A DNA stretch of 47,062 nucleotides, from assembly GCA_017396845.1 (NCBI GenBank), contig JAFQKQ010000096.1, forward strand, positions 1 to 47,062, written 5' to 3'. Positions within the stretch are counted from its first letter, which is position 1, and each line of letters begins with the position of its first letter. Below the pieces are notes generated by a model. The model was not told the origin of the DNA. It did not search any database and saw only the letters and a list, made by a program, of their open reading frames with translations. Of this stretch, positions 44,788-46,050 are shown piece by piece. The DNA is from Clostridia bacterium. Lineage in GTDB: Bacteria > Bacillota > Clostridia > Christensenellales > Aristaeellaceae. The position numbers and the translations under genes were made by a program.

Positions 44788-45804
44788 TCAAGCCTCCTCA
44801 GAGTTCAGGTATGCTTTCAAGGAAAGCGTCTTCTTGGCGATTTTGGCGAACACCTCCGGCGTTATGGACTGTTTTCCGTCGCACAGCGCGTGCGCGGGAT
44901 CGTTATGAACCTCGATCATCAGTCCGTCCGCGCCTGCGGCGACTGCAGCCATTGCCAGAGGTTCGACCAGATCCGCTTTTCCGGTCGCATGGCTGGGATC
45001 GATTACGACGGGGAAGTGCGAAAGCTTTTTAAGCACGGGAATCGCCGCGAGATCCAGCGTGTTTCTTGTATATGTTTCAAAGGTTCTGATGCCGCGCTCG
45101 CAGAGGATTACATCTTCGCAGCCCTCGCTCATCAGGTATTCGGCGCTCATCAGCCACTCTTCATAGGTGGCGGACATGCCTCTTTTTAAAAGGATGGGCT
45201 TTTTCTGTGAGCCGAGCTCCTTCAAAAGATTGAAGTTCTGCATATTTCTTGCGCCCACCTGAATGATATCCACATCGTCAAACAGGGGAAGCTGGGAAAT
45301 CTCCATGATCTCTGTGACAATCGGAAGACCGGATTCCCGGCTTGCGAGCATAAGCAGCCGGAGACCTTCTTTTCCAAGTCCCTGGAAGGCATAGGGAGAT
45401 GTGCGGGGCTTGAATGCGCCGCCGCGAAGCACGGTTGCGCCGGCTGCTTTTACCGCATGCGCTACTTCTATCATCTGCTTTTCGGTTTCGACGGAGCAGG
45501 GGCCGGCGATCAGCGTAAGATTTTTTCCGCCGATCTTTGTTTTATTCAACACGTTTACAATAGTGTCCTCCGGATGAAATTTGCGGTTGGCGTTTTTATA
45601 CGGCTCCTGTACGCGCTTTACGTCCTCCACAATATCCAGCGCCGAAATCAAATCCATATCGAGCTTGCTGGTATCGCCCACAAGACCCAGAATTTGATGG
45701 GAGTCGCCCGTGGATTCGTGAATATTGATTCCCTTGCCGTGGATCCAGTTTTTGAGAGATTCGAGCTGGTTCGGATTCGGATTGGATTTCAGAATAACGA
45801 TCAT
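44788..45804 (-). CDS. aroF: 3-deoxy-7-phosphoheptulonate synthase (DAHP synthase, type I-beta)
   Basis: First committed step of aromatic synthesis, condensing PEP and erythrose-4-phosphate. 338 residues, the size of Thermotoga-type enzymes: an N-terminal ferredoxin-like regulatory domain (about 1-70, starting MIVILKSNPNPNQ) and the barrel with AGPCSVE, GGAFKPRTSPYAFQG, ILLKRG and VVIDPSHATG. The N-terminal domain in this class allows Tyr/Phe feedback. The ATG at 45804 has GGAGG 8 bases upstream; that site begins right after the attenuator's T tract. First structural gene of the operon. Confidence 0.95.
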   Translation of the reverse strand: MIVILKSNPNPNQLESLKNWIHGKGINIHESTGDSHQILGLVGDTSKLDMDLISALDIVEDVKRVQEPYKNANRKFHPEDTIVNVLNKTKIGGKNLTLIAGPCSVETEKQMIEVAHAVKAAGATVLRGGAFKPRTSPYAFQGLGKEGLRLLMLASRESGLPIVTEIMEISQLPLFDDVDIIQVGARNMQNFNLLKELGSQKKPILLKRGMSATYEEWLMSAEYLMSEGCEDVILCERGIRTFETYTRNTLDLAAIPVLKKLSHFPVVIDPSHATGKADLVEPLAMAAVAAGADGLMIEVHNDPAHALCDGKQSITPEVFAKIAKKTLSLKAYLNSEEA

Positions 45805-45819: not shown

Positions 45820-45848
45820 AAAAAAACCGCAGCCGGTTTGGCTGCGGG
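45820..45848 (-). terminator. Attenuator terminator before aroF
   Basis: On the minus strand CCGCAGCC (45847-45840) pairs with GGCTGCGG (45834-45827) around AAACC, followed by seven T (45826-45820). It ends directly before the aroF ribosome site, so it lies in the operon leader, not after a gene. Confidence 0.88.
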
Positions 45849-45888
45849 CGTTTCATACTTGTATCGGAAACCGGATACGGTTTTCCTT

Positions 45889-45984
45889 TCAGCACTCTTC
45901 GCAATTTGCCAAACCGCAATTGACCTTACCGTAAAAGCCGGTAAAGTAAAAATAGGAATAGGCAAAATACTGAATGCGCTTCAT
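45889..45984 (-). CDS. Phe/Tyr-rich leader peptide of the aromatic operon
   Basis: 31-residue frame starting MKRIQYFAYSYFYFTG. Residues 6-18 contain five Tyr (6, 9, 11, 13, 18) and four Phe (7, 12, 14, 17), then the peptide ends with three Cys in its last nine residues. It lies between the operon promoter and the terminator, so scarcity of charged tRNA-Tyr or tRNA-Phe would stall the ribosome before the first switch segment at codons 23-25. The stop is 42 bases before the terminator stem. The ribosome site is weak (an AGGAAAGCGAG stretch is rather far upstream), which is the main doubt. Confidence 0.72.
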   Translation of the reverse strand: MKRIQYFAYSYFYFTGFYGKVNCGLANCEEC

Positions 45985-46021
45985 GGAAATATGCGTCTCG
46001 CTTTCCTGTTTTATGGGCAGA

Positions 46022-46050
46022 ATTATATCACTGCATTCGCGTGCTGTAAA
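46022..46050 (-). promoter_or_regulatory. Promoter of the aromatic operon
   Basis: Minus strand -35 TTTACA (46050-46045), 17-base spacer, -10 TATAAT (46027-46022) with TG one base before it. Start near 46015 gives a leader of about 210 bases. A perfect palindrome AAAGTTAACTTT (46048-46059) overlaps the edge of the -35. Confidence 0.78.

What the first reader, a model, noticed from the sequence alone, without database searches (positions are those of the whole stretch)
45820..46050. Ribosome-mediated attenuator with a Tyr/Phe leader peptide controls the aromatic operon
Between a good promoter and aroF there is a 31-codon frame with nine Tyr/Phe codons in thirteen, then four alternating CGGTTT/AAACCG segments, then an intrinsic terminator touching the aroF ribosome site. 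The segments allow two exclusive folds: 2:3 plus terminator, or 1:2 plus 3:4 antiterminator. This is the logic of enterobacterial phe/trp attenuation. Gram-positives mostly use T-boxes or TRAP for such genes, and here one leader would sense both Tyr and Phe for an operon feeding both. I know of no described case with this arrangement.
Basis: partly seen in the sequence, partly recalled or inferred. Interest (0 to 1): 0.86.

Follow-up and report, generated by a model that had tools for sequence, protein, structure and literature searches.

The report
Tyr/Phe leader-peptide attenuator before aroF
A short frame packed with tyrosine and phenylalanine codons, followed by a transcription terminator and a competing RNA pairing, most likely lets this Clostridia-like bacterium switch on its Tyr/Phe operon when these amino acids run short, and a similar arrangement sits before aroF in most of the relatives examined.

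Summary
On the minus strand, between a sigma-70-type promoter (46050-46022) and aroF, lies MKRIQYFAYSYFYFTGFYGKVNCGLANCEEC* (45984-45889), then a terminator (45847-45820) abutting the aroF ribosome site. It heads eight genes: aroF, tyrA, aroB, aroA, aroC, pheA, aroE-aroK, aroQ.

A Tyr/Phe-rich leader frame precedes 86 of 110 same-family aroF copies read (50 of 1100 shuffles) and 63 of 80 in a titled genome collection. Over 162 distinct leaders the leader end pairs with its own terminator's 5' arm better than with other leaders' (0 of 5000 permutations); the hairpin inside the Tyr/Phe codons and the terminator covary. This is the anatomy of classical ribosome-mediated attenuation.

What seems new is its spread among Clostridia-like genomes that also carry T-boxes, and the mixed codons. 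Regulation is untested. Equilibrium folding always favours the terminator here, so the switch must be kinetic; the two congeners' antiterminator pairings are individually no better than shuffles.

The parts
46022..46050 (-). sigma-70-type promoter, TTTACA-17-TATAAT with TG before the second hexamer; transcription start inferred near 46015
   Evidence: consensus scan, 11 of 12
45889..45984 (-). leader peptide frame MKRIQYFAYSYFYFTGFYGKVNCGLANCEEC*, nine Tyr/Phe in codons 6-18
   Evidence: similar frames in relatives
45924..45946 (-). helix 1:2 inside the Tyr/Phe codons: CTTTACCG (45946-45939) with CGGTAAGG (45931-45924)
   Evidence: MFE fold; over 44 leaders 93.1% of cells paired, 28 cells changed on both sides vs 9.9 in shuffles
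   Evidence: duplex with own terminator -21.1 kcal/mol, 8 of 500 shuffles as strong; nascent fold
   Evidence: nascent fold
45820..45847 (-). intrinsic terminator CCGCAGCC-AAACC-GGCTGCGG + T7; GCCAAACCG (45842-45834) in it is the antiterminator 3' strand
   Evidence: terminator core covaries over 44 leaders
44788..45804 (-). aroF, DAHP synthase type I with ferredoxin-like domain (ORF list start 45819; likely start 45804)
   Evidence: Pfam PF00793, PF18152
43946..44791 (-). tyrA, prephenate dehydrogenase
   Evidence: PF02153, PF20463
42877..43962 (-). aroB, dehydroquinate synthase
   Evidence: PF01761, PF24621
41622..42875 (-). aroA, EPSP synthase
   Evidence: PF00275
40550..41656 (-). aroC, chorismate synthase
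   Evidence: PF01264
39409..40548 (-). pheA, chorismate mutase-prephenate dehydratase
   Evidence: PF01817, PF00800
38160..39404 (-). aroE-aroK fusion, shikimate dehydrogenase and shikimate kinase
   Evidence: PF08501, PF01202
37736..38224 (-). aroQ, type II dehydroquinase
   Evidence: PF01220

Best explanation
A classical ribosome-mediated transcription attenuator controls the aro/tyr/phe operon. RNA polymerase makes the leader; a ribosome follows on the 31-codon frame. If charged Tyr- or Phe-tRNA is scarce the ribosome stalls in codons 6-18; the leader-end segment CGGTTTGGC stays free and pairs with GCCAAACCG as the terminator's 5' arm emerges, before the 3' arm exists, so the terminator cannot form and the operon is transcribed. 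If both are plentiful the ribosome runs over CGGTTTGGC to the stop codon, keeps it from pairing, and the terminator forms. The helix 1:2 within the Tyr/Phe codons probably times polymerase and ribosome; in the window it does not overlap the antiterminator strand, so an untranslated leader is not predicted to terminate more than a stalled one. Shown: anatomy, conservation, covariation of helix 1:2 and terminator, complementarity of leader end and terminator over the set. Inferred: translation, stalling, kinetic preference, response to Tyr and to Phe.
For: Tyr/Phe-rich frame before 86 of 110 family aroF copies vs 50 of 1100 shuffles, 63 of 80 in the titled collection, 22 of the 29 best class-wide loci. 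Terminator-like hairpin after the frame 166 of 172 vs 15 of 172 shuffled. Of 162 distinct leaders 152 have both Tyr and Phe in the best 13 codons; cluster residues Y 521, F 620, W 7 of 1752. Ribosome site <= -5 kcal/mol in 72% of 166 leaders vs 16% of 166 control starts. Leader end vs own terminator 5' arm: -19.2 vs -14.5 kcal/mol permuted, 0 of 5000; mean z -2.0 vs dinucleotide shuffles, z < -1 in 73%; window 8 of 500. Helix 1:2: 28 cells changed on both sides vs 9.9, terminator 54 vs 16.4, no shuffle of 500 as high. Coding stretch folds better than synonymous recodings, mean z -1.2. Nascent model: terminator 5' arm sequestered 0.74 with a ribosome on a mid-run Tyr/Phe codon vs 0.38 at stop; window 0.39 vs 0.03. 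Model R1: of 53 matches in 150 family genomes 51 lie before aroF by my comparison by eye.
Against: At equilibrium the terminator wins at every ribosome position in the window (P 0.94-1.00) and only 30 of 162 leaders drop by >0.3 on stalling (1% of shuffled linkers): a kinetic trap must be assumed. In the nascent model 37% of shuffled linkers also rise by >0.2 on stalling (means 0.52 vs 0.38), against 111 of 162 real ones, so part of the effect is geometric; and the window without ribosome (0.35) hardly differs from the stalled one (0.39). In congeners L002 and L003 and in Oscillibacter valericigenes L111 the duplex is individually no better than shuffles (145, 300 and 190 of 500). Counts of pairs with double changes and of pair types do not exceed shuffles for helix 1:2 (244 and 195 of 500), nor pair types for the terminator (497 of 500). 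The window's Shine-Dalgarno is weak. The antiterminator strand lies 17-25 nt before the stop, so a ribosome at stop covers it only in part. 24 of 110 family and 17 of 80 titled copies show no such frame. R1 matches are partly by construction: 32 of its 44 rows come from these genomes. No expression data.
Confidence: 0.87

Rival explanations
1. The attenuator is real but responds to only one of the two amino acids (most likely Phe), the other codons being there for their sequence, which is needed for helix 1:2.
For: C. glutamicum aroR (Phe-Tyr-Phe) responds to Phe and not Tyr, as told by PMC11802643 (passage). Helix 1:2 uses TTT codons. Eight of 162 leaders have Phe only, two Tyr only (two of the eight, L058 and L153, look like wrong frames). 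TTT makes up 573 of 715 Phe codons.
Against: 152 of 162 clusters hold both residues; Tyr codons use TAT and TAC about equally (268 and 303), which suggests that Tyr is kept as an amino acid; the operon makes both.
Confidence: 0.3
2. A non-ribosomal riboswitch or T-box whose expression platform is this terminator; the frame is incidental.
For: The genomes carry many T-boxes (20 of 20 genomes searched, own included).
Against: No Rfam match to the window at gathering scores or to 14 leader loci up to E 0.1; Tyr/Phe frame with ribosome sites kept in relatives. Inference: a leader of about 196 nt mostly filled by the frame leaves little room for a T-box.
Confidence: 0.04
3. The frame codes for a small functional protein and the terminator only tunes basal expression.
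For: Part of the peptide is similar across relatives (FSFTGF..GK).
Against: Outside the Tyr/Phe run the peptides differ in sequence and length (about 13 to 56 codons), the similar part coincides with helix 1:2, and the RNA covaries and keeps complementarity.
Confidence: 0.04
4. One reading: segments 1:2 plus 3:4 form the antiterminator in this species.
For: The complementarity is present in the window sequence; the congeners do not clearly support 1:4 pairing.
Against: The nascent fold pairs 1 with 4 around 2:3; Oscillibacter L111, L112 and L122 keep CGGTTTGGC with a matching terminator but not the 2:3 hairpin sequence.
Confidence: 0.12

Closest known systems
Corynebacterium glutamicum aroR leader before the aroF operon (Neshat et al. 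2014, not seen, told in PMC11802643; predicted in PMC4046766)
   Same: Leader peptide with Phe and Tyr codons and ribosome-mediated attenuation before aroF in a Gram-positive; Phe limitation raises transcription (passages read)
   Different: Actinobacterium; only Phe-Tyr-Phe; Tyr said to have no effect. Here a run of nine mixed codons, and similar frames in most relatives examined. Sequence homology not tested
uORFC-13-1 motif before aroF in Acholeplasma (PMC8632094)
   Same: uORF with at least one Phe codon, promoter, ribosome site and a terminator just before aroF (passage read)
   Different: 24 sequences in Acholeplasma and environmental DNA; no mixed Tyr/Phe run mentioned in the passage; another base-paired substructure supported but no antiterminator named there
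Enterobacterial pheA (pheL), pheST and trp attenuators
   Same: Regulatory codons in a leader peptide before an amino-acid operon (named in PMC11802643, passage); the 1:2, 2:3, 3:4 logic is recalled
   Different: Those sense one amino acid each; here the operon holds the first step plus both branches
Leader-peptide attenuators in Firmicutes: bacilli hisS/hisZ (PMC2965389) and Staphylococcus aureus ilv-leu (PMC5794164)
   Same: Leader peptides in place of T-boxes in Firmicutes (passages)
   Different: Other amino acids and genes
T-box leaders (RF00230)
   Same: Present in the same genomes; three of five trpE-type matches lie just behind a T-box match, one of the three over the family's cut-off
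   Different: No leader peptide (recalled); none found at this locus

Membership tests
Ribosome-mediated (trp/phe-type) attenuator | Short translatable frame between promoter and operon | tested here: met
   Frame 45984-45889; ribosome sites in relatives 72% vs 16% control, weak in the window
Ribosome-mediated (trp/phe-type) attenuator | Run of codons for the operon's end products | tested here: met
   Nine Tyr/Phe in 13; in 86 of 110 family copies a run of >=5; operon holds tyrA and pheA
Ribosome-mediated (trp/phe-type) attenuator | Intrinsic terminator before the first gene | tested here: met
   Window; 166 of 172 vs 15 of 172 shuffled
Ribosome-mediated (trp/phe-type) attenuator | Helix 1:2 overlapping the regulatory codons | tested here: met
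Ribosome-mediated (trp/phe-type) attenuator | Helix 1:2 exclusive with the antiterminator | tested here: not met
   In the window the two do not share bases: 45931-45924 vs 45916-45908, and no-ribosome sequestration equals the stalled one, 0.35 vs 0.39; in the set as a whole stalled exceeds no ribosome by >0.2 in 64 of 162 leaders, the reverse in 3
Ribosome-mediated (trp/phe-type) attenuator | Antiterminator exclusive with the terminator | tested here: met
   and, for the window, 84; individually not better than shuffles in both congeners. Overlap with the terminator arm (159 of 162) is largely built into the test
Ribosome-mediated (trp/phe-type) attenuator | Ribosome position selects the fold | tested here: inconclusive
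   Yes in the nascent model beyond shuffles, no at equilibrium
Ribosome-mediated (trp/phe-type) attenuator | Readthrough follows tRNA charging | not testable with these tools
   needs expression data
T-box (RF00230) | Match to the covariance model | tested here: not met
   No match in the window at gathering score or at 14 leader loci to E 0.1
Any Rfam 15 leader family | Match to the family model | tested here: not met
uORFC-13-1 motif | Match to its consensus model | not testable with these tools
   model not at hand
C. glutamicum aroR | Sequence homology of the leader | not tested
   sequence not fetched

The most novel reading that the evidence does not exclude
Clostridia hold a large, old and undescribed family of leader-peptide attenuators dedicated to aroF operons that read Tyr and Phe charging together through one ribosome, kept while the RNA sequences turned over, in genomes that otherwise carry many T-boxes; at least one member is doubled in series before one operon.
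Probability: 0.6. Interest if true: 0.62.

Novelty: new member of a known kind. Interest (0 to 1): 0.5.

Why it matters
Here leader-peptide anatomy stands before the aromatic operon in most relatives examined, in genomes that also carry T-boxes (20 of 20 searched). It offers over a hundred distinct leaders for testing how one leader reads two amino acids, and a handle on Tyr/Phe synthesis in these bacteria. Only 1 of 18 family genomes searched, some of them incomplete, showed an anthranilate synthase domain, which fits a leader nearly free of Trp codons (7 of 1752 run residues).

Tried and rejected
Equilibrium folding as a switch test gave P(terminator) 0.94-1.00 in the window for all states; reported as evidence against, and followed by a nascent-RNA model. 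One alignment-wide antiterminator count was not possible, because its register differs between subfamilies in A3; it was counted on a chosen 15-leader subgroup only (A4): 88.9% paired, cells with double change 6 (5 of 500 shuffles as high), pairs 3 (58 of 500), types 9 (77 of 500), and two slid versions have more double-change cells (10 and 7). A pair alignment of window and L002 used a wrong stretch and was not used. Alignment A5 was made and not counted. The R1 match G063:C18 is a terminator behind an unrelated gene. The script picked a wrong hairpin for the first unit of L233; its antiterminator was read by eye only.

Rows left out: only part of the matches was fetched (110 upstream stretches, L001-L110; the lowest-ranking and truncated rows were not). 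Loci cut by contig ends (L016, L047, L054 for instance) count as misses. Some picked frames are probably wrong (L014, L058, L091, L153) and were left in the counts. L191 repeats L001; leaders identical in sequence were merged (162 of 166) for pairing tests. L171, L176 and L184 appear to be the same records as L086, L090 and L069 (equal contig lengths). Class-wide loci L192-L220 are the best-scoring ones, so biased to close AroF relatives. The permutation test does not remove base composition or kinship; the dinucleotide shuffles remove composition only.

Papers: ten searches listed no paper that I could see to describe a Tyr/Phe leader before aroF in Clostridia; listings and passages only, in a library of open-licence papers. 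PMC1173090 (passages) lists putative attenuators before some tyrA operons from a database, Thermoanaerobacter among them, with no leader peptide in the passages seen. PMC4833913 and PMC1262725 (passages) gave nothing on aro leaders in Clostridia.

Full report
What is there. The finding lies on the minus strand. Reading 5'->3': a promoter TTTACA-17-TATAAT (46050-46022), a 31-codon frame (45984-45889) with Tyr/Phe at 9 of codons 6-18, a terminator CCGCAGCC-AAACC-GGCTGCGG followed by seven T (45847-45820), then GGAGG and the ATG (45804) of aroF. The operon holds DAHP synthase, prephenate dehydrogenase, AroB, AroA, AroC, chorismate mutase-prephenate dehydratase, a shikimate dehydrogenase-kinase fusion and AroQ, each by Pfam. 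The divergent gene begins with a PHP domain; that it is dnaE is inference. The leader RNA folds at -67.8 kcal/mol against -46.1 for shuffles, z -5.9.

Where it comes from. The window is contig C68 of a genome given as 73% complete, unnamed. Contigs of three family genomes (G007:C11, G008:C75, G092:C72) have the same lengths as records titled Eubacteriales, Clostridia and Clostridiales bacterium, so I place the family in Clostridia by inference.

Relatives. AroF matched in 104 of 150 genomes of the family. I read 110 upstream stretches. A frame with at least five Tyr/Phe in 13 codons, 60-400 nt before aroF, was present in 86 of 110; the same selection on Markov shuffles gave 50 of 1100. Both congeners (L002, L003) keep frame, codons, helix 1:2 and terminator. 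In a collection of titled genome records the 80 best AroF loci (a capped list) gave 63 with such a frame, among them Oscillibacter valericigenes, Angelakisella massiliensis, Bittarella massiliensis, Clostridium magnum and C. ganghwense. Of the 29 best loci from a class-wide sample 22 had it. After the frame a terminator-like hairpin is found in 166 of 172, in shuffled stretches in 15 of 172. Of 20 titled loci scanned with Rfam, 15 of them without such a frame, one has a T-box (L178). tyrA lies within the 1.2-1.5 kb read downstream in 83 of 114 loci with a frame, and in 12 of 25 without.

Codons. In 162 distinct leaders with a terminator, 152 have both Tyr and Phe in the richest 13 codons, eight Phe only, two Tyr only. 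Run residues are Y 521, F 620, W 7 of 1752. An anthranilate synthase domain (PF04715) matched in 5 of 30 genomes, 0 of 3 in the genus and 1 of 18 in the family; several of these genomes are incomplete.

RNA logic. The end of the leader frame is complementary to the terminator's 5' arm and loop. Over 162 leaders this pairing averages -19.2 kcal/mol; with terminators permuted among leaders -14.5, none of 5000 permutations as strong; with 130 leaders of low mutual similarity z is -18.5. Against dinucleotide shuffles of the leader end the mean z is -2.0, z is below -1 in 73% and 53% lie in the best 5%. Single leaders vary: of 500 shuffles 8 are as strong in the window, 145 in L002, 300 in L003, 190 in O. 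valericigenes L111, 23 in L112, 49 in L122. The window and the three Oscillibacter leaders pair the same CGGTTTGGC. In alignment A3 (44 chosen leaders) helix 1:2 is 93.1% paired with 28 cells changed on both sides (9.9 in shuffles, none of 500 as high), though the numbers of pairs and pair types with change do not exceed shuffles (244 and 195 of 500). The terminator core is 96.7% paired with 54 such cells (16.4; none of 500), pairs 5 (17 of 500), types 10 (497 of 500). In a 15-leader subgroup the antiterminator is 88.9% paired with six such cells (5 of 500), pairs and types not clearly above shuffles (58 and 77 of 500), and two slid versions have more double-change cells. The coding stretch folds better than synonymous recodings, mean z -1.2.

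Mechanism. With the transcript ending just past the terminator loop, the terminator 5' arm is sequestered upstream with mean probability 0.74 when a ribosome sits on a mid-run Tyr/Phe codon, 0.38 with the ribosome at the stop, 0.53 without a ribosome; 111 of 162 leaders are higher by more than 0.2 stalled than at stop, three lower. Shuffled linkers give 0.52 and 0.38, with 37% higher and 8% lower, so part of the effect is geometric. In the window the values are 0.39, 0.03 and 0.35, and the stalled fold pairs CGGUUUGGC with GCCAAACCG around the GGAAAACCG hairpin. So the window's model distinguishes stalled from terminating ribosomes, but not stalled from absent ones; its helix 1:2 (45946-45924) does not overlap the antiterminator strand (45916-45908). 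At equilibrium with the full terminator, the terminator wins at every position in the window (0.94-1.00), and 30 of 162 leaders drop by more than 0.3 on stalling (1% of shuffled linkers; one leader the reverse). The switch, if real, is kinetic, as is held for classical attenuators (recalled). The model ignores RNA behind the ribosome; in the window the antiterminator strand lies 17-25 nt before the stop, at the rim of a terminating ribosome.

Dedicated to the pathway. A covariance model of the leader (R1) matched 53 places in 52 of 150 family genomes; by comparison by eye, 51 lie before aroF on the same strand, within about 200 nt. 32 of the model's 44 rows come from these genomes, so many matches are by construction. 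One (G078) lies before aroB-aroA-aroC in a genome, 72% complete, without an aroF match; one (G063) looks like chance. In a phylum-wide sample 13 of 299 genomes matched; the loci of five of them (L229-L233) show a DAHP synthase motif downstream.

T-boxes. All 20 genomes searched, the window's included, hold T-box matches, 18 of 20 with one over the family's cut-off; the window's genome has 18 matches at E <= 0.001. Three of five trpE-type matches (G366, G539, G009) lie just behind a T-box match, of which only that of G366 is over the cut-off. In G009 a leader of the R1 kind precedes aroF.

Prior knowledge. Passages read: C. glutamicum aroR, a Phe-Tyr-Phe leader before aroF, induced under Phe limitation while Tyr availability has no effect (PMC11802643, citing Neshat et al. 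2014, which I did not see; PMC4046766); uORFC-13-1 before aroF in Acholeplasma (PMC8632094); leader peptides in Firmicutes for hisS/hisZ (PMC2965389) and ilv-leu (PMC5794164). No Rfam family matches. I saw no paper on this element in Clostridia in the listings of ten searches.

Verdict. It is a new and, in the relatives examined, widespread member of a known kind.

Noticed in passing
L233 (G805:C1, reverse strand), R1 matches 739635-739748 and 739461-739568: Two Phe-rich leader frames, each followed by a terminator-like hairpin, in tandem before one aroF (MYNNFVFSNSFFSFTNFFSKVI and MNNLHNSTISFVFFFGFVFFTRLC): attenuators in series, with hardly any Tyr codons.
   Followed up: partly
L226 (G078:C5) about 1452-1585: The same kind of leader before aroB-aroA-aroC in a 72%-complete genome where no aroF was matched: the leader stays with the operon when aroF is not there.
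   Followed up: partly
G010 (L025 and L031): One genome with two aroF copies, each behind its own Tyr/Phe leader of different sequence.
   Followed up: no
L169, L185 (Clostridium magnum, C. ganghwense): Longer leader frames (56 and 49 codons) with two Tyr/Phe runs and a shared SAG(Y/F)xFCKK stretch, a different subtype farther from aroF.
   Followed up: no
window 45889-45984 against L002, L003: The window's leader reads on past the place where both congeners stop, and its Shine-Dalgarno is farther from the ATG.
   Followed up: partly
family f1 genomes: No anthranilate synthase domain matched in 17 of 18 family genomes searched, suggesting Trp auxotrophy; some of these genomes are incomplete.
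   Followed up: no
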